DNA of 64,000 bases from Myxococcus stipitatus (GTDB lineage Bacteria > Myxococcota > Myxococcia > Myxococcales > Myxococcaceae): assembly GCF_037414475.1 (NCBI RefSeq), contig NZ_CP147913.1:9186501-9250500 (forward strand). Direction: 5' to 3'. Below the pieces are notes generated by a model. That model saw nothing but the letters and a program-made list of their open reading frames with translations. It ran no database searches and was not told the DNA's origin. The position numbers and the translations under genes were made by a program. Every line of letters begins with the position of its first letter. The stretch's first letter is position 1. Of this stretch, positions 6,961 to 37,811 are shown in pieces.

Positions 6961-6984
6961 CCTGCGAGATTCCGGTGAACACCC

Positions 6985-21125: not shown

Positions 21126-21201
21126 GATTTCTCCCATGAGTCGAGATTGGGCACGCACGTGTGCCATCCGTCCGGAACTCCCAGGGGTTCCGGCACCATG
21201 T

Positions 21202-21429: not shown

Positions 21430-21482
21430 CGCGAGCCGCAATCACATCGCGGTTTCCCACCAGGGAAGGCAGACGGCTCGCG
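21430..21482 (-). terminator. Probable terminator of the contractile-tail operon
   Basis: CGCGAGCCG (21430-21438) pairs perfectly with CGGCTCGCG (21474-21482), and a small inner stem TTCCC/GGGAA lies between. It starts 10 nt after the stop codon of the last tail gene (minus strand). There is no U-tract. Confidence 0.45.
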
Positions 21483-21492
21483 ACGAGGGGCC

Positions 21493-22260
21493 CTACGTGT
21501 CGCGGCGCACTTCCCGGATGATGCCCACGGGCTCGGGCGTGCCCAGGGAAATGAGCTGCTCGCAGTCGCCGCGGATGAGGAAGTTCGCCTGGGCGCGGCT
21601 GAAGGGCGTGGTGCCCACGGTCTCCAGCGTGCGCGTGACGCCCAGCAGGGCGGCGGCGGGTTGGAGCAGGCGCATGCGGACGCCTGACTCGTCGGGGAAG
21701 GTGTCCTCGTCCTCCAGGTTCCCCAGGTCCGCGCTGGCGGCCAGGGCGGCGGCCAGCGCACGCGACAAAAGTGGCGCGGCGTTGCCCGGTGCCTTCACCC
21801 ACGCGCGGATGGACAGCTTCAATTCGCAGCGCCGCCGCTCCAGGAAGCCCTCGGCGCGTTCACCGCGCAGGAAGGCGACCACGGCTTCGTCGGCCGTCAC
21901 GGGGGCGCGGTAGAGGCGCAGCGTGGTGCCCTCGACGGTGTAGTCGTCTCCTCGGAGGAGGGGGCGGCCCGGCGGCGACTCGACTTCCACCACCTGGCCC
22001 CGGGCCTGGGCGGGGAGCGCGAAGTCCCGCGTCGTTCCGTTGCCGGACCAACGGTGGACCTGGGCGAAGTACGAGGGCTGTCTCTGCGCCGCGAGGTCAT
22101 CGCCTTCGGGGAGCACCAGCTTGAAGCTCGAGGCGCAGACCTCCACGAGCGCCTCCGCGTCGGCGGCGGGGCCCTGTGAGGGCCCGGTCGCCACATCCAC
22201 CGTTTCGGGAACGGCGGGACGGAGCGCATCGTGAAAGTAGGACTCGACGGCGAGGAGCAT
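21493..22260 (-). CDS. Last gene of the contractile-tail operon; possible tail terminator/cap (low confidence)
   Basis: A 255-residue protein starting MLLAVESYFHDALRP. The first 60 residues resemble the opening of tail-terminator-like proteins of contractile systems (a helix followed by VDVATGPSQGP, then a beta strand LVEVCASSFKLVL); the DUF4255/Pvc16 type is the nearest I can recall, without a firm signature. The rest is alternating beta and helix, ending SLGTPEPVGIIREV. It follows the 566-aa gene by 12 bp, so it is in the same operon. If it caps the sheath and tube it would set the distal end of the particle. Confidence 0.45.
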   Translation of the reverse strand: MLLAVESYFHDALRPAVPETVDVATGPSQGPAADAEALVEVCASSFKLVLPEGDDLAAQRQPSYFAQVHRWSGNGTTRDFALPAQARGQVVEVESPPGRPLLRGDDYTVEGTTLRLYRAPVTADEAVVAFLRGERAEGFLERRRCELKLSIRAWVKAPGNAAPLLSRALAAALAASADLGNLEDEDTFPDESGVRMRLLQPAAALLGVTRTLETVGTTPFSRAQANFLIRGDCEQLISLGTPEPVGIIREVRRDT

Positions 22261-22272
22261 GGCGAAGGGGCC

Positions 22273-23973
22273 TCACGAGCGAGGGAAGAGCCCGTAGGTC
22301 TCCCGGCGGGGGATGACGACCTGGAGCTCGGACAAGGTGACGTCACCCGCCGCGGCGGAGCGGATGAGGACTTCCAGCGGAGGGGGACTTCCGGTGCCGC
22401 CGGGCGGTGTGAGCGTGGCCAGCGCCTGGGCATCCAACGCCACGATGCCGGCCTCGTCGGGGGTGACGTCCAGGGTCCGCGTTCCCCAGCGGAGCTGGAG
22501 GCGGGGGCGCGGAGGCGGCTCGGACGGGACGGGGCGCAAGCGCGGGCGCGAGCAGGCCCAGAGTTCCTGCGGATTCACGTCCGTGCCGGGGATGGTGACC
22601 TCGTGAGGGAGCCAGGGACTGAGGGCCTCGGTGCGATGCAGCGCGGGGCCGGGCAGCGTCGTGCTGGCCTCGTCCCTGAAGTCCGTGAGGCTCCAGAGGA
22701 CCTCTCCCTCCGTCGTGGAGAGGACCGCCCACCACGTTCCCGCGCCGAGCGTGAGCGCCTTCTCGGGCGCGAAGGAGACCCAGCGCGCGGGCCAGGGCGC
22801 GGCGCCTTCCTCCAGGAGCCGCAGTGGCATCGGGCCCGTGGGCAGGGGTGTCTCGTCGGGCCTGCCATGCACATCGGCGTGGATGGTGACGGTTCCCTCC
22901 ACCTTCCGGGTGAGGGAGCGCAGATGGAGGTCCAGCGCGGCGAGTCTCCCCACCGCGCCGGTGGAGGTGAACGACTGCGCGGCGGCGATACCGGAGCCGC
23001 AGTGGTAGGCGAGGGGCGGGTGCTCCGGGGGACGGGGCGTGAGGGGCAGGCTCTCTTCGCGCAGCTGGTGACGGACCTGGAAGCGCACCTCGGAGAGGGG
23101 CCGGTCCTTGGGCACGGCGACCTGCGCCGCCGCCATCCCATCCGTGCCCAGTGAGAGCGTCTGCGTCCGCGCGCCCGTGCTCCATTGCTGGATGATGTCG
23201 AGCGTGTCCAGGACGAGCTGGACGCGGTCGAACATGCCCAGGCCGGAGGAGCGGAGGGACACGGCCACCGTTCCGGACAGGAGGTTCGCGGGCCAGGCGC
23301 GCTGGAGCGCGGCGCTGAGCGCGTCCTCCATCACCAGCTCCTGACGCGGAAGCATGGGCACCGAGTGATGGAAGAAGAGGGTGCCCGCGCCGTCGCCGAC
23401 GAAGGCGGTGAGGTCGGGAGGTCGGGCCGGTGCGCGCAGGATGATGCTCTGGAGCTGCGTCGCGGACAGCGTCTTGGGGGTGCCCACCGGCGGCGGCGCG
23501 GCGTTGGCTTCGACGAACTCGACCAGGAGTCGGCCGGCGAGGATGCCGGGCAGATTCTCCACGGTGTTCGTCGACACCGTGTCGGAGGGCGTCGGGGGAT
23601 ACCAGGAGCCCCCTTCCGCGACGCTCAAGCGGCCCTTCTTCGCGGTCTGCACGGGATTGGTGGTGACGAGCTTCAACTCCACGGAGGAGAGCGGCCGGCG
23701 GGAGCCCCAGTCCAGGCTGAGCCAGGTGATGGACCTGGCCGGGTCCAGGGCCGTCTGTCCATCGCTCGTGGCCAGCGTGGAGGCGGGGGTCAGGTTCAAC
23801 GTCACGTCGTCCGCTGGCGCGCGGACCTTGAGCGCCGCGCGCACCAGCGTCACGCCCTCGGGGACGTCCAGGGCGACGACGAGGCCCGAGGCATCCACGG
23901 GCACCTGGGCGGACGAGGGCGGCGTGGCCGTCCCCGTATAGGTCAGCCTGGCGGCGATGCGCGTATCACTCAT
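22273..23973 (-). CDS. Unassigned 566-aa beta-rich structural protein of the tail operon
   Basis: No catalytic motif and no signal peptide are visible. The sequence is rich in short alternating beta strands with many Pro, Thr and Leu, and contains WLSLDWGSRRPLSSVELKLV and a later RWVSFAPEKALTLGAGTWWAVL, which look like jelly-roll or carbohydrate-binding-type domains in series. Its place directly after the S74 fibre gene and a small coiled-coil gene suggests a fibre accessory, receptor-binding or spike-decorating protein. Spacing is 25 bp from the upstream 69-aa gene and 12 bp to the next gene, so the genes are co-transcribed. It is the largest gene in the operon with no family I recognise. 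Confidence 0.65.
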   Translation of the reverse strand: MSDTRIAARLTYTGTATPPSSAQVPVDASGLVVALDVPEGVTLVRAALKVRAPADDVTLNLTPASTLATSDGQTALDPARSITWLSLDWGSRRPLSSVELKLVTTNPVQTAKKGRLSVAEGGSWYPPTPSDTVSTNTVENLPGILAGRLLVEFVEANAAPPPVGTPKTLSATQLQSIILRAPARPPDLTAFVGDGAGTLFFHHSVPMLPRQELVMEDALSAALQRAWPANLLSGTVAVSLRSSGLGMFDRVQLVLDTLDIIQQWSTGARTQTLSLGTDGMAAAQVAVPKDRPLSEVRFQVRHQLREESLPLTPRPPEHPPLAYHCGSGIAAAQSFTSTGAVGRLAALDLHLRSLTRKVEGTVTIHADVHGRPDETPLPTGPMPLRLLEEGAAPWPARWVSFAPEKALTLGAGTWWAVLSTTEGEVLWSLTDFRDEASTTLPGPALHRTEALSPWLPHEVTIPGTDVNPQELWACSRPRLRPVPSEPPPRPRLQLRWGTRTLDVTPDEAGIVALDAQALATLTPPGGTGSPPPLEVLIRSAAAGDVTLSELQVVIPRRETYGLFPRS

Positions 23974-23998
23974 GGAGAGGTCCCTGCCGCGCGGGCCT

Positions 23999-24208
23999 TC
24001 AGCGGGCGGCTTCCTTGATGTCCGTCACGGTGGCGGCGCTGGACTCGTTCGAGGGCAGCAACTCCTGGAGCACCTCGATGGCGCCCTCGATGCGAAGCAT
24101 CGTCTGCACCAACTGCGTGCGCCGGGTGTCCAGCTCCGCCAGCATCTTCTGTCCCGCCTCGTGCTCGGACTTCAGGTCCGCGAGGCGCTTCTCGAGGGTC
24201 TCCTTCAT
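23999..24208 (-). CDS. 69-aa coiled-coil protein of the tail operon
   Basis: A small acidic helical protein with clear heptads through residues 1-50 (LEKRLADLKSEHEAGQKML, then TQLVQTMLRIEGAIEVLQEL). Its start ATG overlaps the stop of the S74 fibre gene (ATGA), so it is translationally coupled to it. It may trimerise and act as a fibre chaperone or connector. No known family is recognised. Confidence 0.65.
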   Translation of the reverse strand: MKETLEKRLADLKSEHEAGQKMLAELDTRRTQLVQTMLRIEGAIEVLQELLPSNESSAATVTDIKEAAR

Positions 24209-25950
24209 GACTTCCGCTCCTGTTCCTGGAGGCGCTGCTCGAGCGCCGCGATGCGTTCGTCGTATTGCTGCTTGAGTTCCTTGAGGGCCGCGATGGCGAG
24301 CACGCTGAAGGCCTCGTACGCGAGACCCTTCAAGGGCTGGCCATCCTCCTTCTTCCGGGGCGCGGTCGAGACGAGCTCCGGGAAGAGCGGCTCCACCTCC
24401 TGCGCGACCAGGCCCAGCTGGTGATGACCCGACGACTTCAGGTCGAAGCTCACCGGGCGCAGCGCGAGCACCCTCGGGAGGACTCCCTCGAGCGACTCGA
24501 TGTTCTCCTTCAGCGACAGGTCGGAGAACTTATGCCACTCGCCATCCTGGGGCATGTAACGGCCGTTGCCGTTGCTGTGGAAGAGGTGGAGGGTTCCTTG
24601 TCCCTCGAAGGCGAGGTCGACGAAGCGCCCGGAGCCATTCTCCGTGAGCTTGATGCCCGCGTTGTTATCTCGCTGGACGACGTGCAGCGGCACGTTGGGA
24701 CGCGGCGTCCCGATGCCGATGTTGCCGTTGTAGATGATCATCCGCTCGCCGCCGGACTGGGCGAAGACGATGACGTCACCCGGGTCGTTCTCGTTGGAGA
24801 TGACCAGCCTTCCGTTCTCCTCTTCGCCGGGCAGCGGATTGGGCGCGCGGTAGTAGCGGATGCTCGCGGAGTCGCCGTTGCCGCCCCACGGGTCCAGCGG
24901 GAACTGGATGCCATTGCCGGGCGCGTTGCCGATGGAGGGGATGACGGCCCCGCTGACGCGGAGGCTGCCGCCCTGGACATCCAGCCGGGCGCCGGGGGCC
25001 GCCGTCCCGATGCCCACGTTGCCGTCCGCCCCCATCCACAGGGCGTGGTTGTTGTTCACGATGAAGGAGAACGCGTTGTTCAGCCGCGCGCCCACGTCCC
25101 ACATCAGGCCCGTGGCGACGCCGCCGCTCAAGCCGTAGCGGATGGAGGCGCGGTTCTCGGCGTTGTTCCAGACGACGTGGGGGTTGTTGATCATCAACCC
25201 CGCCGCGCCGCCCGCGCCGATGGTGACCTGGGGCTGGCCGTTGCCCCACAAGGTCGTGGTGTTCACCACCAGGCGGTCAAACCCCGCCGCCGCCGAGGAC
25301 AGCCGGATATCCAGCGCGCCTTGCGGGTCCGTGGTGTTGAGGCCCAGGTTGCCGCCCGCCTTGAGATGAAGGCGGGGCGTTCCGTAGCCGCCGCCGTTCT
25401 CTCCATCACCGCCGCCCTCGGAGATTTGGAACCCCTCGGCCGCGGCGCCCAGCTCTCCCTTGAGCAGCCAGCTCTTGTTGCGGCTGCGAAGCTGGAGCGC
25501 GGCTCCGTCGGTGCCGCCCGTCGTCTTCAACAGCAAACCCACGCCCCAGGCCTGGCTCCCCGAGGAGCGGATCTCCACGGCCGCGTTGTTGTCCGCGGTG
25601 CTCTGGACAAGCAGGCGCCGCGTGCTGGGCCCCGTGCCGATTCCCACGTTGGCCATGGCGGAGAACGGGCCGGTGACGGTGCCTCCCGTGAGGGACAACT
25701 TCGCGGCCTCGGTGTCGGCCATCCACTTGGAGATGTCGACGTTCTTCACCGTCAACCCGAGCGTGGCCTCGACCTTGTTCACCTTCAGCGTCGCGGTGGG
25801 CGAGATGCTGCTGCCATCGAGTGGCTGGCCGTCATCTCCGCCGCGGTGTGTGTGAGAACGAATCTCGTCCCGCGTCTTGATCTGCATGTTGTTCCAGGTG
25901 TCCGCCAGGATGGGGTCACCTGATTTCGCGGGGTAGTAGGGCTCACTCAT
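24205..25950 (-). CDS. Tail fibre with C-terminal S74 intramolecular chaperone
   Basis: A 581-residue protein. The N-terminus (MSEPYYPAKSGDPILADTWN) probably docks to the baseplate and is followed by SHTHRGGDDG, an HxH element of the kind that binds metal in trimeric fibres. The middle has repeated fibre motifs NVGIGTGPSTRRLLVQ, NLGLNTTDPQGALDI, NVGIGTAAPGARLDV and NIGIGTPRPNVPLHV. The C-terminus (about 470-581) is a peptidase-S74-type self-cleaving chaperone: SDLSLKENI gives the Ser476/Lys481 dyad, ending in a long helix (IAALKELKQQYDERIAALEQ). In phage fibres this domain helps the trimer fold and then cuts itself off. It should determine target binding of the particle. The start overlaps the gpI-like stop by 4 bp. 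Confidence 0.85.
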   Translation of the reverse strand: MSEPYYPAKSGDPILADTWNNMQIKTRDEIRSHTHRGGDDGQPLDGSSISPTATLKVNKVEATLGLTVKNVDISKWMADTEAAKLSLTGGTVTGPFSAMANVGIGTGPSTRRLLVQSTADNNAAVEIRSSGSQAWGVGLLLKTTGGTDGAALQLRSRNKSWLLKGELGAAAEGFQISEGGGDGENGGGYGTPRLHLKAGGNLGLNTTDPQGALDIRLSSAAAGFDRLVVNTTTLWGNGQPQVTIGAGGAAGLMINNPHVVWNNAENRASIRYGLSGGVATGLMWDVGARLNNAFSFIVNNNHALWMGADGNVGIGTAAPGARLDVQGGSLRVSGAVIPSIGNAPGNGIQFPLDPWGGNGDSASIRYYRAPNPLPGEEENGRLVISNENDPGDVIVFAQSGGERMIIYNGNIGIGTPRPNVPLHVVQRDNNAGIKLTENGSGRFVDLAFEGQGTLHLFHSNGNGRYMPQDGEWHKFSDLSLKENIESLEGVLPRVLALRPVSFDLKSSGHHQLGLVAQEVEPLFPELVSTAPRKKEDGQPLKGLAYEAFSVLAIAALKELKQQYDERIAALEQRLQEQERKS

Positions 25951-27344
25951 GACTGGAACCTCGAGGTATCGAAGCGGGTACCGTTGAAGACGCCGTCCCA
26001 GGTGAGCTTCTCCTGGGGTTCGGAGAACTGTTCGTGCAGCGAGATGGTGGAGCCGAACGAGGTCAGCTCATCTGTCGCGTCGAGCTGCTCGCTGAAGAAG
26101 AAGGGGTCGAGCTCGAGGTTGAGCGGGCCCTCGCTCGCGATGAGCGACTCCGGAGGCATGGGGAGGGTGAGCTCGATGCGGGTGCGAACGCCCGCGCAGC
26201 GCCCGTACTCCAGCGCCGCCGCCAGCTCCTTCACCAACCCCGGCAGCCCAGGCACCACCCCTTCTTCGTTGGGCACCAGGAGATGGGGCGGGATGTGATT
26301 GGCCGGGATGCGCAGGGTGCAGGTCGCGGGGGTGACTTCCGTCCACGAGAAGCGCAGCTCCGCACGGGGCGTGTCGCGCACGGGCAGGGCCTGCGCCTCG
26401 GCGGCCTGTTGCCGCTCGCTGGACCAGCCCAGCAGATAGGCGCGGACCTCCTGCCGCTCGACGGTGTCGTAGGTCCAATGGCTGTCACCTGGGGATAGCT
26501 CCGGGAGGCCATGGTCCTCCTTGAACACGGAGAAGCGGGCCTCCGGCATGTCGAAGCGCGCCATCACCCCCACGTCGTTCGGTCCCGCGAATCGCGTGGG
26601 GTGGGCCAGGATGATGGGCGTGTCCACGGGGCGGCCATCAAGGATGGGTGGACGGCCGTCGCGCAGCAGCAGCGTGGAGCCTGGCGGGATGCGGCCCAGG
26701 AAGATGACGTCGAGCCCCAACTCCTCGTGCCGGAGGATGGGCACGGCGATCTCCCGCTCGGTTGCCTTGAGCGAGATTTCGACCTGCGCGGTCTCCAGGC
26801 CCTGGTTGGTGGTGAGCAGCCGCTGCTCCCGGCCGAAATTGCGGAAGCTGGAGCCCGCGGGCATCTCCGGGTTGTCCGCCAGCTCGATGCGGAGGTCGCG
26901 GTAGGTGCCGTCCGCGCGGGGCACGGAGAAGAGGCCGACCGCGGTGTCTCCCTCCCACACAATCCGAGGCGGCTGCCGCGCCATGTAGACGAGGGAGACC
27001 AGGCGGAGCAGGGCGGGCGCGGAGGCCAGGCCGGTGCGGTGCAGCTCCACCATGGCCGCCAGCCGCTCGCGCAGATAGACGTCGGACTCGCCCCGGCGTG
27101 GAGACACGCCGTAGAGCATCGCGACACGTCCCAGCTCCGAGTCCGCCTTGTTCAACAGCGTGGCGTCGACCGCGAAGCCTCGCGCGAGTGAGTACCAGCG
27201 CGAACGCATCAGCCGCGTGAGGCCCGACTCCATCGTCTCCAGCTCTTGGGAGAGCGAGCCGAAGAAGCTTTGGATCTTCGTTCCGGACTGGAGAACGGGG
27301 GGCAGGTACCCCAGCATGCGGCGTCTGCGTTGGTCCGCGCTCAT
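25947..27344 (-). CDS. gpI-like tail/baseplate protein, enlarged
   Basis: A 465-residue protein. Residues 1-130 match the phage tail protein I pattern: LGYLPPVLQ near the start, a helix LSQELETMESGLTRLMRSRW, then YLRERLAAMVELHRTGLASAPALLRLV. gpI of phage P2 is under 200 residues, so about 300 residues here are an extension, beta-rich and with RDGRPPILDGRPVDTPIIL. It should join the wedge of the baseplate and link to the fibre encoded next. The ATG overlaps the gpJ-like stop by 4 bp (ATGA), indicating translational coupling. Confidence 0.75.
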   Translation of the reverse strand: MSADQRRRRMLGYLPPVLQSGTKIQSFFGSLSQELETMESGLTRLMRSRWYSLARGFAVDATLLNKADSELGRVAMLYGVSPRRGESDVYLRERLAAMVELHRTGLASAPALLRLVSLVYMARQPPRIVWEGDTAVGLFSVPRADGTYRDLRIELADNPEMPAGSSFRNFGREQRLLTTNQGLETAQVEISLKATEREIAVPILRHEELGLDVIFLGRIPPGSTLLLRDGRPPILDGRPVDTPIILAHPTRFAGPNDVGVMARFDMPEARFSVFKEDHGLPELSPGDSHWTYDTVERQEVRAYLLGWSSERQQAAEAQALPVRDTPRAELRFSWTEVTPATCTLRIPANHIPPHLLVPNEEGVVPGLPGLVKELAAALEYGRCAGVRTRIELTLPMPPESLIASEGPLNLELDPFFFSEQLDATDELTSFGSTISLHEQFSEPQEKLTWDGVFNGTRFDTSRFQS

Positions 27345-28921
27345 CCGACCCCCACCAGCTCGGCCCCGCCGAACTCCAGCCGCACATCGGCCTTCACCAG
27401 CAGCTGGGTGACCTGGTCCGGAATGGCCAGGGCGGGCGAGTTCGGAGCGACCAGCGACACGGTGATGCCGGTCTCCAGCGTGACGTCACAGCCCAGCAGG
27501 GATTGGATGCGGGCCTGGGACTGCAGACCTTGCTGCAGCGAATCCCAGGTGAGGTGCGCCTCGCGTCCCATCTGCGCTTCCTCGGAGAGCCTGGCGGCGA
27601 AGACGTCCAGCGCGCCACGCAGCGCCTCGCGCACCTGCTCGGGCGTGCGAGCTTCTCCGCTGGAGAGCGACACCACCAGGTCCAGCCGCCACATGGGCGT
27701 GCGCAGCCGGGTGATGCGCGGCGGCTTCTTCTCCAGGTCGATGCGCCCCGCCTCCAGGGGCTCCATCTTCCAGTCGCGGTTGGCGCCGTACACGCGGCTG
27801 CGGGATTCGCGCACCAGGGTCTTCTGCGTGGGCGGGTTGCCCGTCAGGCCCCAGACATACGTCTCCACGCCCAGGTCGCTCACGCGGCGCACGGCGGGAT
27901 TTCCGAAGAGCACGGCCTCCAGCTTGCGGCGGATGACGGGGGCTCCCACGGGCAGCTCCCGCATGTACTGCGCGAGCGCCTGCTGAAGGTCCCGCCGCAG
28001 CCGGTCGAACGTCACTTCATCCATGTCATCGCGGGTGGGCTCCACCCGGAAGTCCACCTGGAAGAAGATGGTGCGCGCGTAGCGGAGCCGGACGCGGATG
28101 CCAGCGGCCTTCGTCTCACGGATGGCGGCTTCGACGCGGGCGACCCCTTCGACGTCGGCCTCGAAGTCGGTGTCACCCACGAGCACGTCCACGACACCGG
28201 GCGGTGCATCGGCGGGCTCGCGCACGGTGACTTGCTGCACGCCTTGCTGGTGCACGGCGGCGGCGATGGACTCCAGCGTGCCCTTCTCTCCGTCGCGCAG
28301 CGCGGTGCGGGCGCGAGCGCGGAGGTTCTCATCCGTCTCGTTGTCCGAGCCTCGGCGCAGGGGGCCGGGATTGGTGACGGCCTCGATGCCCAGGATGGGC
28401 CGGGGCATCAGCGTCAGTCGGAAGGGGTCGATGGCGGGCGGGGCCTCGCGGTCGGGTTGCTCCTCGTCCTGGACCTCCTGCACGGGGATGACGACGCGGG
28501 TGTCGCCCTTGATGAGGGTGGCGTCCTCCATCGTCTCGAAGAGCGGCAGCGGCTTGCCGTCCGCGCCGAGGCCGGTGACCTGGCGCCCCGCGGGAATGCC
28601 GATGTCATCCGGTGCCGGCGTGGCGCGGCTGAGCTCCACCTGGCCCATGAGCCGCCCGGCGCGTGCGCGCTTCAGGCCCAGGACAGCCACCACGTTGTCC
28701 AGGGCGGGGCCCTCGGCGGTGTCGAGGTAGCCCGCGCGATGCGACAGCTCGAGCATGGCGTAGAACGTCGCCATCTCGCGCGCGTAGGCCTCCGCCAGGG
28801 TGCGGGCCATGCCTCCGGCGTTGGGGTCCATGCCGGGCCCCAGGTTCTCCAGCAGCCGCTCGACGATGGCGCTGAAGGTGTTCTGGTCGGAAGGGTAGAG
28901 GCTCAAAAGGTGATCTCCCAC
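27341..28921 (-). CDS. Baseplate J/gp47-like protein
   Basis: A 526-residue protein with the baseplate-J pattern: N-terminal helices (NTFSAIVERLLENLG, TLAEAYAREMATFYAML), GYLDTAEGPALDNVVAVLGLKR, then NPGPLRRGSDNETDENLRAR and ESIAAAVHQQGVQQVTVREP, typical of the gpJ core. It is longer than P2 gpJ (302 residues) and nearer to the larger baseplate proteins of extracellular contractile systems. The start is either GTG 28921 or, with a better GGGAG site and a tight overlap with the preceding stop, TTG 28906. It should form baseplate wedges with the gp25-like and gpI-like proteins. Confidence 0.85.
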   Translation of the reverse strand: MGDHLLSLYPSDQNTFSAIVERLLENLGPGMDPNAGGMARTLAEAYAREMATFYAMLELSHRAGYLDTAEGPALDNVVAVLGLKRARAGRLMGQVELSRATPAPDDIGIPAGRQVTGLGADGKPLPLFETMEDATLIKGDTRVVIPVQEVQDEEQPDREAPPAIDPFRLTLMPRPILGIEAVTNPGPLRRGSDNETDENLRARARTALRDGEKGTLESIAAAVHQQGVQQVTVREPADAPPGVVDVLVGDTDFEADVEGVARVEAAIRETKAAGIRVRLRYARTIFFQVDFRVEPTRDDMDEVTFDRLRRDLQQALAQYMRELPVGAPVIRRKLEAVLFGNPAVRRVSDLGVETYVWGLTGNPPTQKTLVRESRSRVYGANRDWKMEPLEAGRIDLEKKPPRITRLRTPMWRLDLVVSLSSGEARTPEQVREALRGALDVFAARLSEEAQMGREAHLTWDSLQQGLQSQARIQSLLGCDVTLETGITVSLVAPNSPALAIPDQVTQLLVKADVRLEFGGAELVGVG

Positions 28922-29388: not shown

Positions 29389-29435
29389 CACGCTCTCCCC
29401 ACGTCGATTCCGTACCCGTTGTCACGCCGACCCGC

Positions 29436-30496: not shown

Positions 30497-30498
30497 GG

Positions 30499-31131: not shown

Positions 31132-31667
31132 GTCGGGGCTCCCGAGGGAAGCGCCAGGTTTCCGCCACCGGTGAGGGACGCGCCCGCGACCAGCGCCTCA
31201 CCGAGCTTCTTGAGGGTCTCCTTCACCTGGACCACGGACTCGCGAAGGGACTCGAGGGACTGCTGGGGCAGATAGCCCTGGAGGATGAGGGTGACGCCGG
31301 CGCGGAGCTTCTCGAGGACGACGGACGCGGCATGGGCCGCGCCAGCCAGCGGGGCGAGTGGCTCCAGCCCCATCTCCCGCATCTCGTCCTCGGACTTGTC
31401 GCCAATGGCCTTGAGCCCATCCAGCGCGGGGTCCAGGCTCTCGAGCAGCGCGGGGATGGCGGCGACCTGCTCCAGCTTGGCGATCCAGCTGATGATGAGG
31501 TCCAGGGCCTTGCCCAGCGCGTCGATGCCCACCTTCACGGGGGCGCCGATGCCGAACTGGCGTACGAGGGCGACGATGGCATTCACCGTGTCCGTCTTGA
31601 GCAGCTTGTCCACGGCGACGACGAGTCGGGTGATGCCGTCGACGATGTCGGCGGTCGTGGTGCTCAC
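31128..31667 (-). CDS. Helical hydrophobic protein of the tail operon, unknown
   Basis: GTG start at 31667 overlapping the preceding stop by 4 bp (GTGA). The 179 residues are nearly all amphipathic helix (DIVDGITRLVVAVDKLL, GIDALGKALDLIISWIAKLE, HAASVVLEKLRAGVTLILQG) and end in a Gly/Ser tail (ASLTGGGNLALPSGAPT). No cysteines, no signal peptide, no catalytic motif. It resembles in style the protein at 38038-38547, also linked to this operon, and the helical C-terminal half of its upstream neighbour. Candidates are an internal tube ligand, a short tape-measure-like protein or a cargo. No family is recognised. Confidence 0.6.
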   Translation of the reverse strand: MSTTTADIVDGITRLVVAVDKLLKTDTVNAIVALVRQFGIGAPVKVGIDALGKALDLIISWIAKLEQVAAIPALLESLDPALDGLKAIGDKSEDEMREMGLEPLAPLAGAAHAASVVLEKLRAGVTLILQGYLPQQSLESLRESVVQVKETLKKLGEALVAGASLTGGGNLALPSGAPT

Positions 31668-32548
31668 GGAAGTTTCTCCAGGTCCTTGAAGGGGCCGAGC
31701 GGGTCGAAGTTGCCGATGGCGCTGCCCAGCGCTCCGGCCTCCTTGCCCACGGCTTGAAGCTTGGCGAGGAAGTCGCTGGCGCCCGCGATGCCCTTGACGA
31801 CGGCGAGCGCCGCGCCCAGGTCCAGGCCGGTCATCTCTTCCAGGATGCTGATGCCTTCGGTGGCGAGCTTCTCGATGAACTCACCGATGCTCCCCGCTTG
31901 GGAGAGCGACTGCACGAGGCCGATGATGGCGCCGGGGTTCACCTTGCCGAGCGCGCCCATGAGGCTTCCGAAGTTCTTGCCCGACAGCGAGCCCTTGGCG
32001 CTGTTGACCACCGAGCCCAGCTCGTCTGGAGAGAGGTGGGCGAGGAGGTCCGGGTTCGCGTCGACGGCGTCCATCAGCGACTCGGGGTTCTGGAGCACGC
32101 CCGCGGCGTCCGTGTTGCTCTTCGCCCAGTCCTGCGCGTCGCTGGCCACGGCGTCGTTCACCGCGCTGACGCCCGCGTCCTGGCTGGCGGGGGGCTCGAC
32201 GTACTCCTTGACGCGCAGGAAGAAGCTGAAGCGGTTCTGGTGGCCGGCGAGCTGGCGCACCTGGAAGTCCGCGATGAGGACGTCGGTGAGGTCCGCGCCG
32301 GCGATGGCATCCGAGGCGAACGACATGGGCGTCGCCTTCGTCTGTGCTTGTCTCAATTCCTCCAGCGCGGCTTGAGGGTCCTCTCCGAGCAGGAGCCCCT
32401 CCATGACGACGGTGACGGGCTCGCGGCCCAGGTCCTGGAAGACGCTGCCGGCCTGACCGGGCACACGCTGCTGCACGAGGTTGCGCGCGTCCTCGGTGTA
32501 GATTTGCGTGAGCCCGACGAGCTCGATTTTTCCGATGCGGACGGGCAT
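31664..32548 (-). CDS. Mu gpN / DNA-circulation-N-like hub adaptor with helical C-terminal half
   Basis: ATG at 32548, one base after the gpD-like stop, gives 294 residues. Residues 1-125 fit the N-terminal domain of Mu gpN-type tail proteins (DNA_circ_N): KIELVGLTQIYTEDARNLVQ, RVPGQAGSVFQDLGREPVTV, then LADFQVRQLAGHQNRFSFFLRV-like strands. Such proteins bind between tube and hub rather than circularising DNA. Residues 135-294 are Ala/Gly/Leu-rich helices (SLMGALGKVNPGAIIGLVQS) that are not part of that domain. The gene order gpD-like, gpN-like, spike is typical of the hub module. Confidence 0.6.
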   Translation of the reverse strand: MPVRIGKIELVGLTQIYTEDARNLVQQRVPGQAGSVFQDLGREPVTVVMEGLLLGEDPQAALEELRQAQTKATPMSFASDAIAGADLTDVLIADFQVRQLAGHQNRFSFFLRVKEYVEPPASQDAGVSAVNDAVASDAQDWAKSNTDAAGVLQNPESLMDAVDANPDLLAHLSPDELGSVVNSAKGSLSGKNFGSLMGALGKVNPGAIIGLVQSLSQAGSIGEFIEKLATEGISILEEMTGLDLGAALAVVKGIAGASDFLAKLQAVGKEAGALGSAIGNFDPLGPFKDLEKLP

Positions 32549-32549
32549 G

Positions 32550-33578
32550 TCAGAGTTCCATCCGGGTGGTGAAGCCCGTGCGGGCATTCAGGGTGTGGCG
32601 CACCGAGCGGACCCGGAGGACCACGCGGGACAGGAGCGATTCCACGGGGTGGCCTTCGGGGATGTCGTTCACCTGGATGAGGTCCCCCGGTTTCACGGCG
32701 GGAGCCCCGAGCACCTCGAGGAAGCCGTGCAAGGGGCGGGAGGCGAGGGCGGTGGTGCGGGCCTTGGCCTGGGTGGATGCGTCGTCACCGGAGCGCACCG
32801 CGCCGTCCTTCACTTCGCGAGACTGCTGTCCCGTGGAGCCCGTTCGCACCTTGCCGTTCGCGCCGAGCGCGGCCTTGCCGTGAATGGGGGCGAGGTCATC
32901 GACGAGCCAGTGCGCCTTCTTCTCGCCCTGGGAGCTGGCGGCGCCCTCGCCCCAGACCTCGAAGCCGTCGATGACGGTGAGCGGACGGCTGAGCTGGGTG
33001 CGGAGGACTTGGGAGCGATAGACGAAGGTGTGGTCGGCGCTGCCCTGCTTGGGCGCGGCGAAGTGGACCTTGCCCTGGCCATCCGTGAAGACATCGAAGC
33101 CGGCCTGCGCCGCCAACTGGTGGATGTGGCGCAGGGCCCGGGGGCCCCGGTGGAGGACGTAGCTGGCAAACGTGGGCCCATCCTCGATGGTGCCTGGCGT
33201 GGCGCCCGCCTTGTTGACGAGATCTCGAACGATGGAGCCCGCGGTCATTTGTTCGTAGGCGCCCGAGACATCGAGCCGCGCGAGCTTCGCGAGTGCATCA
33301 CCGCCGAGCACGAGGGACGTGTCGGGGGCACCACGGGACTCCAGCACCTGGCCCGTGAAGACGGTGACGGCGCCGTCGCCGCCGTCGAGGGAGATGGTGG
33401 TGGCTTCGCCGGGAGGAGGGAGCGGGGAGTCGGAGGGAACCAGCTCCACGGAGCACCGTCCGCCCGCGCCGTCCATGGTCAACTCGCTCGTGATGGAGCG
33501 GACGAAGGCCTGTCCCTGGCGGGAGGAGTGAGAGGCTCGCAGCGAGCCGATGGTCACGGAGTATCCGATGCCGGCCAT
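32550..33578 (-). CDS. gpD-like baseplate hub protein (late control D type)
   Basis: ATG at 33578 (MAGIGYSVTIGS), with GGAGG 9 nt upstream inside the previous gene, gives 342 residues. The pattern is that of phage late control gpD / Mu gp44 hub proteins: N-terminal beta-barrel with VFTGQVLESRGAPDTSLVLG, then LDVSGAYEQMTAGSIVRDLV, a helix, RALRHIHQLAAQAGFDVFTD, and C-terminal PGDLIQVNDIPEGHPVESLL. The hub adapts the sixfold tube to the threefold spike. There is no LysM repeat. The gene sits 4 bp after the disordered protein gene. Confidence 0.8.
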   Translation of the reverse strand: MAGIGYSVTIGSLRASHSSRQGQAFVRSITSELTMDGAGGRCSVELVPSDSPLPPPGEATTISLDGGDGAVTVFTGQVLESRGAPDTSLVLGGDALAKLARLDVSGAYEQMTAGSIVRDLVNKAGATPGTIEDGPTFASYVLHRGPRALRHIHQLAAQAGFDVFTDGQGKVHFAAPKQGSADHTFVYRSQVLRTQLSRPLTVIDGFEVWGEGAASSQGEKKAHWLVDDLAPIHGKAALGANGKVRTGSTGQQSREVKDGAVRSGDDASTQAKARTTALASRPLHGFLEVLGAPAVKPGDLIQVNDIPEGHPVESLLSRVVLRVRSVRHTLNARTGFTTRMEL

Positions 33579-33582
33579 GTGC

Positions 33583-35172
33583 TCAGACCTCCATTCCGTG
33601 ACGGCGAGCTGTCTCGCGAAGGATGTCCACCAGGGCGTCTTCCAACGTGCGGCGGTCCAACCCTGGCGCCGCGCTGTCGGAGCCAACCTGGACATTCACG
33701 TTGAAGGTATTGCGGACACCCGCGGACTCGTTCGCGGGTGCGCGGCTCGCGGTCTCCGAGGGCTGCGCCTGACGAGTGAGCTGCTCGGCGCGAGTCACCA
33801 GCGGAGCCAACTCCTGGGTCACCTGCCGCGCGAGTTGAGCGGTCGGGCTGGGAGGCGGGGGCGATGTGTCCGAGGGAGGCGCGAAGTGGAGCCGGGTCTT
33901 CGGTCGTGCGCCCGTGGCTGGGGCCCGTAAAGCCGAAGGTGTGGAGGTCGGTGAGAGCAGCCGCACGACGGGCCGTGGTGACGACGTGTTCTCGCGAGGG
34001 GCTTCGGGACGAGCGGACGACGCGGGAAGATTCGGTGAGCCGGCGGCGTGCGAGTCCTGAAGTGGCTCGGGCCCAGCGGCGGTTTGATACGAAATGGAGT
34101 GGGCGCCGGACGCGGCTGGAACGGTCGCGGGCCGCGAGGCGGCTGCGGGAGCGCTGGAGTGCGGCGGTGAGGGCAGAGGTGCTTCAAGCCGTTCGGCGGC
34201 CGAGCGAGCCGGAGCTTCCGAAGTGACCTCGTGACGAGGGACCGATGCGGCGAGAGGCTGCGCCGAGGAGGTGCTCTCGCTTCGAGCGGGATGCGGCACG
34301 GCAGCGGGCACGCCTTCGGCGGAAGGAGTCAGAGGGCGGAGCAGACGAACCACCTGTCGCTCAGGAGGTCGTGGAGGCGTCGCCTTGATGGAGATGCTCA
34401 ATCCCGAAGGGATGGAGGAGGGCGCTGGAGCGGCCGCGTGATGCGAAAGCGCGTCTCCCGAAGTGACTCCAGTCTTGTCTTCACGGGGTTCCGCACGGGG
34501 CGAGAAGGTACTGGTTCCCCCCATGGGCCGATGGGGGGACGCACCGTGGGGGCCGACGGGTTCGCGCGACGTCGCAGGAGACACGACGGAGTCGGGACTC
34601 CGCGCGGGTGAGCTCGGCGCGAAAGGCACCGTGGGGACGGCCCTCTCTTTCATCACACGAGGTTCGGTGGCTGCGACCGGCGTCCGGCCAGTCGAGTCGT
34701 GCGAGTGTGACGCGTTCCTCGCCCGTTCTGGTGAATCGGCGGATGCACCGGTCCGCGCGGTATCGCTGTCGCGGTCAGTCGGACGCGGTGAGGTGACGGA
34801 GAGCGGCGAGGTTCCCGGCTCGATAGCGAGGCCGTCCTTCCGCATGACGCCGGAAGGCGCAGCAGCTCTCCTCGATGGATCAGGCGAAGTGCCTTCGGTC
34901 CGCATCGCCGTGGCCTCGGGCGCGTCCGACCTCATCTCGGACGAGGCACTCGATTGCGAAAGAGGCGGTGCTCCCATCGGTGCCGTCTCGCGTGATCGGA
35001 CAACCTCGGACGTGGAGGCTTCGTCCGTCGCGATGGCTTGCTCCCGCGAGGCTTCCACGGGCGCGGAGGCCGGCACCGCGACGCCGAGCTGCCGGGCGAC
35101 GACTTCGATGGCGCGGAACGCGGGGCGGGAGAGCCGTGAGGTCAGCTCGGCGGTGGTGAACGTCTTGCGCAT
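33583..35172 (-). CDS. 529-aa mostly disordered Pro/Ser/Ala/Arg-rich protein in the tape-measure position
   Basis: ATG at 35172 shares its A with the preceding TGA (TGATG), and the gene ends 4 bp before the hub gene, so it is a genuine member of the operon. Only the ends look folded: residues 1-40 (MRKTFTTAELTSRLSRPAF, AIEVVARQLGVAV) and about 488-529 (RNTFNVNVQVGSDS, LDRRTLEDALVDILRETARR). The roughly 440 residues between are low complexity in Pro, Ser, Ala, Thr, Arg and Glu, with no coiled coil. In contractile tails the gene after the assembly chaperone usually encodes a long helical tape measure. This one could be a divergent length-control protein, a chaperone or a cargo; no family is recognised. 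Confidence 0.65.
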   Translation of the reverse strand: MRKTFTTAELTSRLSRPAFRAIEVVARQLGVAVPASAPVEASREQAIATDEASTSEVVRSRETAPMGAPPLSQSSASSEMRSDAPEATAMRTEGTSPDPSRRAAAPSGVMRKDGLAIEPGTSPLSVTSPRPTDRDSDTARTGASADSPERARNASHSHDSTGRTPVAATEPRVMKERAVPTVPFAPSSPARSPDSVVSPATSREPVGPHGASPHRPMGGTSTFSPRAEPREDKTGVTSGDALSHHAAAPAPSSIPSGLSISIKATPPRPPERQVVRLLRPLTPSAEGVPAAVPHPARSESTSSAQPLAASVPRHEVTSEAPARSAAERLEAPLPSPPHSSAPAAASRPATVPAASGAHSISYQTAAGPEPLQDSHAAGSPNLPASSARPEAPRENTSSPRPVVRLLSPTSTPSALRAPATGARPKTRLHFAPPSDTSPPPPSPTAQLARQVTQELAPLVTRAEQLTRQAQPSETASRAPANESAGVRNTFNVNVQVGSDSAAPGLDRRTLEDALVDILRETARRHGMEV

Positions 35173-36032
35173 CAGTCGTCCTCCACTTGAATGACCACCG
35201 CGTCGGGAAAGTCGGAGAGCCTCGGTGTCCGCCGCTGGGGTGTGGGAGCGGGGGCCTGTGGCTCGGTGAGTCGCAACATGGCGAGCAACCGGTCCACCTC
35301 GGCGGCGGGGGTTGCCCAGACCTGGGAGGGGGTCCATCCCAGGGCACGACAGAGCTTCAGGGTCACCTCGGCGAGGATGCGTGCCTCGGCTCCCGGGGTT
35401 CGAAGAGTCTGGTCTTCGTTCCGTTCATCCCCCGTGTTGATGGAGACCACGGCCTCCAGCAGCGCCGTGGTGCTGGCGCCATCGAGCGTGTCCAGGGGAA
35501 CGGCCGGAACGATTTCCACGACAGACACCGCGAGCATGGCGCGCAGGTAGCGCTCCAGGTTCAGCTCGCGAGCACCGTCGGGCTCCAAGGTCAGACTCTC
35601 TTCCATCGCCCGGGCTCGCTCGGAGAACGTCCACGGACGAAGCCGTGCCCGCACATCTCCGGCCTGGACCCATCCCTCGGGAAGTGTCCCGAGTGAAGAC
35701 TCACGGGCCCCGCCCAGGGCCCACCACAGCGCCAGCGGAGTCAGCTCCGAGAAGCGAGACTCCGGAACACCCGAGCCGCGCAGCACGTCCGAGGCGAACC
35801 CATCCGCGTCGAAGGTCATCCCCGAGACGTCGAGCCAGGCATGGACCCCCAGCGCCCGCAGGTGTGAGTCGAAGCTCCAGGGATGGAGCTGGAAGCGCTC
35901 GCCCGTGGAGGCCTCGACCTCCGGTGCCCCGGAGATGACTCCGGGGTGGAGGTGGAAGGTCTGGCCGTCGATCTCGATGGAGATCGCCGCCGCGCCGGCC
36001 TCCAGGTGTGGGCTCGCGGGCGCCTCCCTCAC
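35172..36032 (-). CDS. Tail-assembly-chaperone-like protein
   Basis: GTG start at 36032, 3 bp after the tube gene, gives 286 residues. The N-terminal part shows internally similar strands (FHLHPGVIS, FQLHPWSFD, ARLRPWTFS). The C-terminal part has LCRALGWTPSQVWATPAAEVDRLLAML, here cited in pieces: CRALGWTPSQVW and AAEVDRLLAM. This resembles the short region in tail assembly proteins that precede tape-measure genes. Position directly after sheath and tube supports that reading. It should be cytoplasmic and help assemble tube on the tape measure. A larger size than usual and the repeated N-terminal motif are odd. Confidence 0.5.
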   Translation of the reverse strand: MREAPASPHLEAGAAAISIEIDGQTFHLHPGVISGAPEVEASTGERFQLHPWSFDSHLRALGVHAWLDVSGMTFDADGFASDVLRGSGVPESRFSELTPLALWWALGGARESSLGTLPEGWVQAGDVRARLRPWTFSERARAMEESLTLEPDGARELNLERYLRAMLAVSVVEIVPAVPLDTLDGASTTALLEAVVSINTGDERNEDQTLRTPGAEARILAEVTLKLCRALGWTPSQVWATPAAEVDRLLAMLRLTEPQAPAPTPQRRTPRLSDFPDAVVIQVEDD

Positions 36033-36035
36033 GGC

Positions 36036-36425
36036 TTATTCCTCGCGGAGCCGGGTCGCCGTGAAGGCGTACGTCGTGGCCGCGCTGCCGTGCGCGTCCA
36101 TCTGGAAGGACTTGCCCTCGACGAAGCAGTCGTCGAACGACAGCGTCCGTGTGTCGTCGGTGCCCTCGGTGCGCTTGAGGTTGGCCACGAGCTGGAACTT
36201 GCCGCGTGCGTCGAGCAGCGCGTCCAGCTTCACGGCGGCGGAGCGGATGACCAATTCACCCACGACGGTGCGCAGGCCGAAGATGACGTCGACGCGCTCG
36301 TTGGAGCCGATGGCGCGGATGTCCTCGCGTTCGGTGACCACACGGAAGGCGATGGACTGGAGGCCTTCCACGGCCTCGCCGTCGACGAGGATGCTGCTAC
36401 GGTTGGCGGAGAATACCGTTGGCAT
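36036..36425 (-). CDS. Contractile tail tube protein
   Basis: A 129-residue beta-rich protein starting MPTVFSANRSSILVDGE. Strands alternate through SIAFRVVTEREDIRAIGS, RVDVIFGLRTVVGELVIRS and a C-terminal FAFTATRL-like strand (TYAFTATRL). It follows the sheath gene by 15 bp, the standard sheath-tube order, and the size fits inner-tube subunits (about 130-170). Family membership rests mainly on order and composition, because tube proteins diverge strongly. Hexamers would stack into the rigid needle. Confidence 0.7.
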   Translation of the reverse strand: MPTVFSANRSSILVDGEAVEGLQSIAFRVVTEREDIRAIGSNERVDVIFGLRTVVGELVIRSAAVKLDALLDARGKFQLVANLKRTEGTDDTRTLSFDDCFVEGKSFQMDAHGSAATTYAFTATRLREE

Positions 36426-36440
36426 CTGGGTGGTTCCTCA

Positions 36441-37811
36441 TCAGACCTGGACCGTGATGGTCGCGTAGATGTAGTCGATGGCGCGCACGGGTCTGACGGC
36501 CATGTTGACCCTCACGATTCCTTGCGCGAAGTCCTGTTGCGACGAGTAGACCTCCACCTTGAAGGCGGGGTCCTTTCCGTCGGTGGAGGGGACGATGGCG
36601 CCTTCCTTCTGCATCTGCACCAGCGCCTCCACCAGCTTCTGCTTCAGCGCGCTGCGTCCGTCCGCGTTGTTGAGCAGACCGATGAACAGGTCGCCCACCA
36701 TCTTCAGCGTGCGCACCGCGCGGTCCGCCACGCGGCGGACGTTGATCTGATCTCCATCCGTGGTCAGTCCCCGCACGACGATGGTGCCGCGCCCGCGCTC
36801 GGTCACCACGGGGACGACGTAGGAGCGCAGGAGCGCCTTCTGCTCCTCCACGCTCAGCGAAATCTCGTTCAAGCCCGTCACGCGCTTGAAGGTCGGCGAC
36901 TGGTGTGGCGTCAGGCTGCCCACCATGCCAGCCACCGCGCCCACCGAGCCATGCGGCGCGACGAGGACGAAGCGATCACTCACTAGGTTCGAGGCGAGCT
37001 GTCCATGCTCCTCCATCGTCCCGGTGAGGGGCACCTGTCCGAAGCCGATGCGCCCCTTGCTGTCGCCGCTCATGGCGTTGCAGTGGCTGATGACGTCGCC
37101 GTAGATGCGGGTGACCTTGGCGCGATCAGAGAAGTCCTGGACCGCGGCCATCACCAGGTCCACGTCTGGCTGGTCGCGCAGGCGGCCCAGGGCGGTGGCG
37201 TACTCTTCGGGCGTGGCGTCCTTGCCGGTCGCGAGCGTGTACGTGCCCTCGGTGGGCCAGCCCACGCCCTTCGTCGTGTCCACGCGAATGAAGGACGACG
37301 TGTCGAGCGAGGAGACCAGCGACGTCGCGTTGATGTTGCGCAGGGTCTCCGAGGCGCCGCTGGAGGGGTGGGTGACCTCCAGGTCGTAGGACACCGACTT
37401 GTCGATGTTGTTGCGGTAGGCGACCTTGATGGTGATGCCGTTGGCCCAGAGGCCCGGGGCGCGCGCCACGAAGGTGGCGCCGTACTTCTCACCCGAAGAG
37501 CCCGCGGGATACTTGCTGACGTCCGCCGCGATGGCGACCATCGCGCTCGCGCCAGCCGTCGCCGGCAAGGGCGAAATCACCAACTCGGAGACGCCGTTGT
37601 CCAGCGCCTGGCGGGCCTCCGGGAGGCTGTAGGCGCTGGCGCGCCCCGTGACCTCCAGGAAGCGCGACCAACTGCTCGCGCGGACGACCTTGCCCTGGGA
37701 TGACTCCAAGAAGCCTGTGATTCCAAGAACCCCAGACGGTGCAAGCTGTTGGGGCAATACTTCCTTGACGACCGTCACTTGGACGCCAGGAATGATGAGA
37801 CCTGTGGCCAT
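36441..37811 (-). CDS. Contractile tail sheath protein
   Basis: The ATG at 37811 has GGGGAG directly upstream and gives 456 residues (MATGLIIPGVQVTVVKEV). The pattern is that of P2/Mu-type tail sheaths: an N-terminal handshake strand with PGVQV, then FLEVTGRASAYSLPEARQAL and a central beta-rich domain (YGATFVARAPGLWANGITIK). The conserved C-terminal domain follows: RRVADRAVRTLKMVGDLFIG, LFIGLLNNADGRSALKQKL, ending RPVRAIDYIYATITVQV. The length is normal for short sheaths (about 400-480). It contracts to drive the tube. It is the first unambiguous tail gene of the operon; the upstream 226 bp may carry the promoter. Confidence 0.9.
   Translation of the reverse strand: MATGLIIPGVQVTVVKEVLPQQLAPSGVLGITGFLESSQGKVVRASSWSRFLEVTGRASAYSLPEARQALDNGVSELVISPLPATAGASAMVAIAADVSKYPAGSSGEKYGATFVARAPGLWANGITIKVAYRNNIDKSVSYDLEVTHPSSGASETLRNINATSLVSSLDTSSFIRVDTTKGVGWPTEGTYTLATGKDATPEEYATALGRLRDQPDVDLVMAAVQDFSDRAKVTRIYGDVISHCNAMSGDSKGRIGFGQVPLTGTMEEHGQLASNLVSDRFVLVAPHGSVGAVAGMVGSLTPHQSPTFKRVTGLNEISLSVEEQKALLRSYVVPVVTERGRGTIVVRGLTTDGDQINVRRVADRAVRTLKMVGDLFIGLLNNADGRSALKQKLVEALVQMQKEGAIVPSTDGKDPAFKVEVYSSQQDFAQGIVRVNMAVRPVRAIDYIYATITVQV

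What the first reader, a model, noticed from the sequence alone, without database searches (positions are those of the whole stretch)
21493..37811. Headless contractile-tail particle encoded in one coupled minus-strand operon
Seventeen genes with 1-4 bp overlaps or short gaps encode sheath, tube, hub, spike, gp25, gpJ, gpI and an S74 fibre. No portal, capsid, terminase, integrase, holin, lysin or regulator gene is visible in or beside it, which argues for a domesticated contractile injection system or tailocin, not a prophage. The AAA+ ATPase typical of extracellular contractile injection systems is also absent, so it fits neither standard category cleanly.
Basis: partly seen in the sequence, partly recalled or inferred. 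Interest (0 to 1): 0.8.

Follow-up and report, generated by a model that had tools for sequence, protein, structure and literature searches.

The report
Headless contractile tail of myxobacteria
A block of 18 genes in a soil myxobacterium appears to encode a phage-tail-like contractile particle with no virus head; it is kept by selection, has moved between related bacteria, differs from the injection machine also present in the same genome, and probably serves as a fibre-aimed weapon.

Summary
Seventeen tightly packed minus-strand genes (21493-37811) encode a contractile tail, and an 18th (38038-38547) belongs to the unit (found in 15 of 18 other loci). The order is kept in the 18 loci, apart from truncated ones and rearrangements in one distant relative. 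No significant head, packaging, lysis, integrase or AAA+ match was found in it. dN/dS is below 0.55 in every comparison (spike 0.01-0.03); the S74 fibre and a Pro/Ser/Ala-rich candidate tape measure change fastest. In one clade of 11 genomes it sits 18-37 kb from pheT; elsewhere it sits at other places and gene trees disagree, so it has moved between genera, though no mobility gene was found. The same genome also has a canonical eCIS (Pvc16_N, fused hub, CIS_TMP, AAA+) 2.1 Mb away, so this is a second, distinct lineage. A triple-repeat protein after the spike, split 2+1 in one relative, may cap the trimeric spike in place of PAAR. Target, cargo and release are unknown; a fibre-aimed antibacterial particle is most likely.

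The parts
38038..38547 (-). 169-aa helical-looking protein, 18th gene of the unit
   Evidence: 5' of the sheath in 15 of 18 other loci; dN/dS 0.11-0.16; weak PHROG tape-measure hits, best E 5e-4; alignment of 11 rows
36441..37811 (-). g1 tail sheath, 456 aa
   Evidence: Pfam Phage_sheath_1C 8.7e-8; Phage_sheath_1 2.3e-4, below cut-off; PHROG tail sheath 8e-19; AF2 model of modest confidence, pLDDT 62, matches sheaths
36036..36425 (-). g2 tube, 129 aa (by position, size and conservation)
   Evidence: follows the sheath in the 17 other loci that reach it; dN/dS 0.05-0.11; one match in each of 24 genomes; no PDB profile hit
35172..36032 (-). g3, 286 aa, candidate tail-assembly chaperone
   Evidence: position; 3 of 20 homologues match Phage_TAC_6, best E 0.036, not significant
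33583..35175 (-). g4, about 530 aa, Pro/Ser/Ala/Thr/Arg/Gly-rich, candidate tape measure
   Evidence: conserved ends, hypervariable middle (15 rows); 416-640 aa in 17 other loci, start approximate in 3; dN/dS 0.27-0.53; no family hit
32550..33578 (-). g5 baseplate hub, 342 aa, VgrG/gpD-like
   Evidence: PHROG hub 9.7e-6; NCBIfam VgrG_rel 1.7e-11, below its cut-off; profile hit to 9gtr chain q, E 8e-8
31664..32548 (-). g6 DUF6046 / DNA_circ_N-like protein, 294 aa
   Evidence: Pfam DUF6046 1.5e-6; DNA_circ_N 0.0031, below cut-off
31128..31667 (-). g7, 179 aa, partly similar to g6
   Evidence: blastp g6 vs g7, 37% over 56-59 residues, E 1e-4 to 8e-4; 13-row alignment
30499..31131 (-). g8 spike, 210 aa (separate from the hub)
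   Evidence: Phage_base_V 1e-6; dN/dS 0.012-0.027
29846..30496 (-). g9 triple-repeat protein, candidate pseudo-threefold spike cap (ATG at 30496)
   Evidence: three repeats, pairwise z 13.7-17.3 against 500 shuffles; 214-216 aa in 17 of 18 other loci; a two-repeat and a one-repeat ORF in the 18th, G081
29436..29846 (-). g10 gp25-like wedge / sheath initiator, 136 aa
   Evidence: PHROG baseplate 4e-15; Pfam Sheath_initiator 8.5e-6, below cut-off
28903..29391 (-). g11, 162 aa, phage-associated family
   Evidence: phrog_5417 5.7e-15, function unknown; a tail fibre family 1.6e-4
27341..28921 (-). g12 baseplate J, 526 aa
   Evidence: Pfam Baseplate_J 1.3e-11; PHROG wedge 1e-32
25947..27344 (-). g13, 465 aa, in gpI position
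   Evidence: weak PHROG baseplate/tail hits, E 0.0018 and 0.0075
24205..25950 (-). g14 tail fibre with C-terminal S74 chaperone domain, 581 aa
   Evidence: Peptidase_S74 7.5e-11; S74 in 7 of the 10 divergent homologues scanned; dN/dS 0.38-0.47
23999..24208 (-). g15 small coiled-coil-like protein after the fibre, 69 aa
   Evidence: weak coiled-coil families; found in 17 of 18 other loci, not in L040
22273..23973 (-). g16, 566 aa, sub-threshold 'choice-of-anchor R' match
   Evidence: NCBIfam 1.8e-5, below cut-off; no Pfam or PHROG hit
21493..22260 (-). g17 predicted tail terminator with an inserted beta domain, 255 aa
   Evidence: AF2 pLDDT 83.5; lambda gpU Z 12.2, rmsd 2.3, 123 residues; S. coelicolor CIS cap Z 8.7, Afp cap Z 8.5; Foldseek best hit a phage neck, E 2.9e-9, TM-score 0.42

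Best explanation
The locus encodes a complete headless contractile tail kept by selection in Myxococcaceae. Supported by sequence or predicted fold: sheath, separate hub and spike, gp25/J baseplate, S74 fibre, tail terminator, no head genes. Inferred: g2 is the tube; g3 chaperones assembly; g4, anchored by its conserved ends, sets tube length; g17 caps tube and sheath; g9, three tandem repeats in one chain, caps the trimeric spike as PAAR does elsewhere; g14, trimerised with help of its S74 domain, binds a target cell; contraction then drives the tube through the envelope. Most likely use: an antibacterial particle against competitors, kin or prey, released by producer lysis with no lysis gene in the cluster. 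Whether it kills by puncture (R-tailocin-like) or carries an effector is open; I put puncture somewhat ahead because no cargo gene is part of the conserved unit.
For: Families. Terminator fold. Hub profile hits 9gtr chain q. Order kept across 18 other loci with the exceptions listed in the full report; between loci at different sites, called flank ORFs shared one match only, 32% over 220 residues. dN/dS under 0.55 in 18 of 18 genes in 3 pairwise comparisons, without a significance test. One tube match per genome, in 24 of 195 phylum genomes; sheath in the same 24, of 145 order genomes, own genome included. Fast-changing fibre. g9: significant repeats, still three in all when split 2+1. A review (PMC6070905, passages) reports phage-like, largely defective, non-propagating particles in Myxococcus supernatants (1976); no link to this locus is shown.
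Against: No expression or particle data. No lysis gene, regulator or toxin recognised in the cluster. Tube, chaperone and tape-measure roles are positional. A Pro-rich tape measure is unusual, and its length runs from 530 to 640 aa among the four closest genomes. The sheath model is of modest confidence. The g9 cap has no structural test. Terminators also occur in headed phages. The 1976 particles resembled phage Mx1, so they may have been something else.
Confidence: 0.55

Rival explanations
1. An eCIS-like extracellular injector that loads an effector encoded elsewhere in the genome.
For: Hub profile hits 9gtr chain q at 8e-8 and 7aef chain q at 0.012; the one paper found that holds the code 9gtr is on the S. 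coelicolor CIS (listing). NCBIfam VgrG_rel 1.7e-11, below cut-off. No lysis cassette found.
Against: No AAA+, Pvc16_N, CIS_TMP or PAAR match in the cluster; the genome's canonical eCIS has the first three. No conserved cargo gene at the borders.
Confidence: 0.25
2. A contact-dependent or intracellular device (T6SS-mode, or Streptomyces-like death of the producer).
For: No release genes found. Foldseek's first sheath match is the H. borinquense sheath (9ezm, E 1.1e-13), a membrane-bound system (PMC11566945, abstract and passages). The 169-aa protein has a hydrophobic stretch (KD19 1.81).
Against: An S74 fibre suggests binding to an outside target; no clear membrane protein in the cluster; many phage sheaths match the same modest model about as well (Z 9-13).
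Confidence: 0.15
3. A decaying prophage tail with no function.
For: Phage-derived families; portal genes elsewhere in the chromosome.
Against: Open frames and low dN/dS throughout, nearly constant order across genera, no head family among 11 window flank proteins.
Confidence: 0.03

Closest known systems
Extracellular contractile injection systems (Afp/PVC, AlgoCIS, S. coelicolor CIS)
   Same: Headless sheath-baseplate cluster with terminator and fibre; hub profile hits CIS-type hub chains; terminator fold shared.
   Different: No AAA+, Pvc16_N, CIS_TMP or PAAR family match; hub and spike are separate genes; fibre, two further genes and the terminator follow the baseplate genes.
R-type tailocins (R-pyocin, diffocin, monocin)
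   Same: Headless contractile tail with variable fibre; terminator resembles the pyocin R2 collar (Z 9.9) and diffocin collar (Z 9.3).
   Different: No holin/lysin or regulator recognised in the unit; S74 fibre; low-complexity candidate tape measure; triple-repeat g9.
Contractile phage tails with baseplate J (SPO1-like, haloviruses and others)
   Same: gp25, J and DNA_circ_N-like proteins; J matches 87 phage records, all under 60% identity.
   Different: No head genes; the sheath has no tblastn match at 1e-5 among 50,697 phage records.
Myxococcus PLTS/eCIS (MXAN_4492-4510, table in PMC4122934, passage)
   Same: Myxobacterial headless contractile cluster.
   Different: The own genome's canonical eCIS at 7.122-7.141 Mb is a separate locus with Pvc16_N, fused hub-spike, CIS_TMP and AAA+. 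Whether it corresponds to MXAN_4492-4510 was not tested.

Membership tests
eCIS (Afp/PVC type) | Sheath, hub, spike, gp25 and J in one cluster without head genes | tested here: met
eCIS (Afp/PVC type) | AAA+ ATPase in the cluster | tested here: not met
   no AAA match in the 18 proteins; control: found in the same genome's canonical eCIS, 1.6e-26
eCIS (Afp/PVC type) | Pvc16_N (PF14065) terminator | tested here: not met
   no match in 18 g17 homologues at E 0.5; the only match in the genome is at 7.12 Mb. The predicted fold belongs to the wider terminator class
eCIS (Afp/PVC type) | CIS_TMP (PF19268) tape measure | tested here: not met
   g4 has no Pfam hit; the canonical eCIS protein hits at 3.1e-82
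eCIS (Afp/PVC type) | PAAR spike tip | tested here: not met
   no PAAR family match in the 18 proteins; PAAR was not sought elsewhere in the genome
eCIS (Afp/PVC type) | Published rule: at least ten core genes by eCIS HMMs and one of Afp12, 13, 14, 16 (PMC8213781, passage) | not testable with these tools
   those HMMs are not held here
R-type tailocin | Headless contractile tail with terminator and fibre | tested here: met
R-type tailocin | Linked lysis cassette and regulators | tested here: not met
   none recognised among the 18 proteins and 11 window flank proteins. Among 123 flank ORFs of other loci two match 'minor tail protein with lysin activity' (1.8e-27), not traced further
R-type tailocin | Released and bactericidal | not testable with these tools
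   needs culture work
Prophage | Portal, terminase, capsid nearby | tested here: not met
   nearest Phage_portal about 749 kb away. Other portal, terminase and capsid families were not searched genome-wide
T6SS | TssJLM membrane complex and ClpV | tested here: not met
   no such Pfam match among the cluster proteins

The most novel reading that the evidence does not exclude
A third, myxobacterial class of headless contractile particle that is neither eCIS nor R-tailocin: its spike is capped by a PAAR-unrelated protein whose three tandem repeats imitate a trimer, its length is set by a disordered Pro/Ser/Ala-rich ruler, and the whole 17-kb unit passes between genera without mobility genes of its own.
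Probability: 0.35. Interest if true: 0.72.

Novelty: new variant of a known kind. Interest (0 to 1): 0.55.

Why it matters
Myxobacteria are social predators with several known killing devices; a second contractile particle beside the canonical eCIS would be a new one to test. The 2+1 split of the triple-repeat protein makes a clear structural prediction about spike tips, and the low-complexity candidate ruler tests what a tape measure needs to be. It is also one candidate source for the defective, phage-like particles seen in Myxococcus supernatants in 1976, although nothing here links them and those particles were said to resemble phage Mx1.

Tried and rejected
Viral relatives: scans of IMG/VR with the sheath and tube alignments gave 118 and 62 pattern matches, none confirmed; tblastn in phages of the sheath, g11 and the last 50 residues of g4 gave none. 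The contig scans reach close relatives mainly.

PDB profile searches: no hit for sheath, tube, g17, g3, g6, g16; only unconvincing rows for g9, g13 and g11, among them an AAA+ chain at E 0.093 for g11. Only the hub hit a tail protein.

Borders: no shared word of 13 or more between 20201-21492 and 38548-39900. Promoter-like sites 1 against 0.7 expected, terminator-like 9 against 7.2.

Empty site: not clean. In the four cluster-free relatives sampled the outer neighbours are kept, but 17137, 18386, 19932 and 38689 were not found in the stretch.

The sheath model (pLDDT 62) does not rank sheath families; top VIA rows lie close together, most with rmsd above 14. In the VIA table for g17 the rows are mostly terminators and neck proteins; exceptions are the top row (2gjv, unknown function, Z 12.7), 4acv (Listeria antigen B, Z 10.9), 2l25 (unnamed, 7.3) and tailspike/baseplate rows for the inserted domain. 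Hits of small proteins (g15, g7) to enzyme or eukaryotic families were judged chance.

Flanks of other loci: 123 of 135 called ORFs (12 short or cut ones dropped) were scanned against PHROGs; 52 families matched and only 25 were shown, none of these labelled head or packaging by description.

Literature: searches and passages of ten papers showed no description of this cluster; no paper was read whole, supplements were not read, the library is open-access only, and eCIS catalogues that include Myxococcota may hold it.
Full report
WHAT IS THERE. Between 38547 and 21493 on the minus strand lie 18 genes. Profile searches give sheath, hub, DUF6046/DNA_circ_N protein, spike OB protein, gp25, J and an S74 fibre. 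Tube, chaperone (g3), tape measure (g4) and gpI (g13) are positional readings. The 169-aa gene upstream sits 5' of the sheath in 15 of 18 other loci, so it belongs to the unit.

NO HEAD, BUT A CAP. No cluster protein has a significant match to head, packaging, lysis, integration or AAA+ families; the weak rows with such labels are given in the observation check. Eleven window flank proteins gave no head or packaging family. The 10.31-Mb single-contig chromosome has no Pfam TerL_ATPase match and three Phage_portal genes, the nearest about 749 kb away; other terminase, portal and capsid families were not searched genome-wide. The last gene, without a convincing family hit in 18 homologues, gave a confident AlphaFold2 model (pLDDT 83.5). 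Foldseek's first hits are phage necks (E 2.9e-9, TM-score 0.42), with the PlPVC1 cap at rank 7. VIA's first row is a protein of unknown function (2gjv, Z 12.7), then lambda gpU (Z 12.2 over 123 residues); the pyocin R2 collar has Z 9.9, the S. coelicolor CIS cap 8.7, the Afp cap 8.5. Residues about 63-136 form an inserted domain resembling a tailspike domain (TSP4, Z 7.1, 69 residues). So the tail probably carries its own terminator; headed phages have such proteins too.

IS IT REAL AND MAINTAINED. The sheath occurs in 24 of 145 genomes of the order, and the tube once in each of the same 24 among 195 of the phylum, own genome included. A genome-contig scan with J gave 8 loci, one of them a distant Polyangia MAG (L040). 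Eighteen other loci were compared. Exceptions to the order: L037 and L040 are cut at their starts; G081 has g6 and g7 fused, g11 after g13, g15 and g16 exchanged, and its g17 cut by the end of the stretch; g4 was not detected by tblastn in G081 or L040, nor g13 in G081, nor g7 and g15 in L040, although ORFs fill the g4, g13 and g7 slots; the 169-aa gene was not found in G081, L037 or L040. Flank ORFs of loci that I grouped as different sites shared one match, 32% over 220 residues, at E 1e-10 or better; several loci hold little upstream flank. Against three close genomes pairwise dN/dS is below 0.55 for all 18 genes: spike 0.01-0.03, tube 0.05-0.11, sheath 0.10-0.12, S74 fibre 0.38-0.47, g4 0.27-0.53 (one aligned piece per gene, no significance test).

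HOW IT TRAVELS. In 11 genomes the sheath lies 18-37 kb from pheT (places). These 11 form a clade in both the sheath-tube tree (24 genomes) and the PheT tree (28 genomes, G121 left out), with minor differences inside. In four of the ten genomes of the genus without a sheath match, the genes at 15894 and 40995 are both kept, 4.7-10.0 kb apart instead of about 24 kb, with no cluster gene between; but four nearer neighbours (17137, 18386, 19932, 38689) were not found there, so the site is not a clean empty one. In five genomes where both lie on one long contig (G105, G110, G101, G048, G070) sheath and pheT are 0.2 Mb or more apart. G058, G062 and G070 are one clade by PheT; in the cluster tree G058 joins G101 and G108 (100/99), G070 joins the 11-genome side (96/93), and G062 stands apart with weak support. 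This implies transfer. No integrase or border repeat was seen.

DISTINCT FROM THE eCIS IN THE SAME GENOME. At 7.122-7.141 Mb the chromosome has Pvc16_N (4.4e-33), sheath, a hub with GPD and OB domains in one chain, J, CIS_TMP (3.1e-82) and AAA+ (1.6e-26). The finding's cluster has none of Pvc16_N, CIS_TMP, AAA+ or a fused hub, yet its hub profile hits 9gtr chain q, a VgrG/gp5-type protein (8e-8); the one paper found with that code is on the S. coelicolor CIS (listing).

TWO ODD PARTS. g9, directly after the spike, is three tandem repeats of about 65 residues (pairwise z 13.7-17.3 against 500 shuffles, window protein). It is 214-216 aa in 17 of 18 other loci. In G081 the slot holds a two-repeat ORF followed by a one-repeat ORF that begins with MPAP like the full protein (a draft assembly): three repeats are kept although the gene is split. 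I infer a pseudo-threefold cap for the trimeric spike, doing what PAAR proteins do elsewhere (recalled geometry). g4 is 416-640 aa in 17 other loci, 54-70% P/S/A/T/R/G, with conserved ends and a hypervariable middle (the start is approximate in L035, G081 and L040). Its place between the chaperone-like g3 and the hub suggests a ruler; this is inference.

MECHANISM. Assembly from the baseplate, length set by g4, capping by g17, target binding by the S74 fibre, contraction and puncture by spike g8 with g9. The fibre is among the fastest-changing parts, and 7 of 10 divergent fibres scanned keep S74 (L054, L059 and L040 do not), which suits a changing range of targets. Release and cargo are not explained by any gene in the unit. 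Two distant members carry an extra protein of about 650 aa before the spike; the G081 copy has a peptidoglycan-binding domain (3.3e-7), the L040 copy was read but not scanned. This would fit a bacterial target there.

PRIOR REPORTS. Passages of PMC6070905 say that Brown and colleagues (1976) saw phage-like, largely defective, non-propagating particles similar to phage Mx1 in supernatants of several Myxococcus species, and lysis of some bacteria near M. virescens. PMC4122934 (passage) lists an eCIS-like cluster in M. xanthus. PMC11937823 (passages) describes transcribed eCIS clusters with T4 gp19-type tubes in marine Myxococcota; g2 has no Pfam match. PMC12923769 (passage) counts Myxococcota among eCIS bearers. 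I found no description of this cluster (listings and passages only).

VERDICT. Real, ordered, selected, headless tail: about 0.93. Antibacterial fibre-aimed particle: 0.55. A new lineage of a known kind of machine, with two parts worth a structural test.

Noticed in passing
own genome G000:C1:7122322-7141066 (L114, L115): A canonical eCIS (Pvc16_N, sheath, fused VgrG-type hub, J, CIS_TMP, AAA+) in the same chromosome, just after genes that read like polyketide synthases (recalled resemblance, not searched).
   Followed up: partly
own genome G000:C1:8458503, 7933621 and 2469541: Three phage portal genes, so prophages or relics probably lie elsewhere in the chromosome.
   Followed up: no
L059:9821-11794 and L040 about 5472-7769: Distant members of the cluster carry an extra protein of about 650 aa between g7 and the spike; the L059 copy has a PG_binding_1 domain.
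   Followed up: partly
sheath gene of L036, L038 and relatives against window 36441-37811: The sheath carries an insertion of variable length after about residue 105 (456 to 528 aa), Ala/Lys-rich, as if a surface domain were being added.
   Followed up: no
G095, G105, G110, G114: A second, weaker sheath match (29-35% identity) lies elsewhere in these four genomes, possibly their canonical eCIS or another lineage.
   Followed up: no
flank ORFs of other loci (A14): Two of 123 flank ORFs match a PHROG family of minor tail proteins with lysin activity (1.8e-27); which ORFs they are was not traced.
   Followed up: no
L038: The record is titled Comamonas sp. KCTC 72670, but its contig length equals that of G108, which the tool places in the window's genus; it looks like a mislabelled myxobacterial assembly.
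   Followed up: partly
window 58915-63945, minus strand: A 1676-aa open frame that reads like a nonribosomal peptide synthetase (recalled resemblance, not searched).
   Followed up: no
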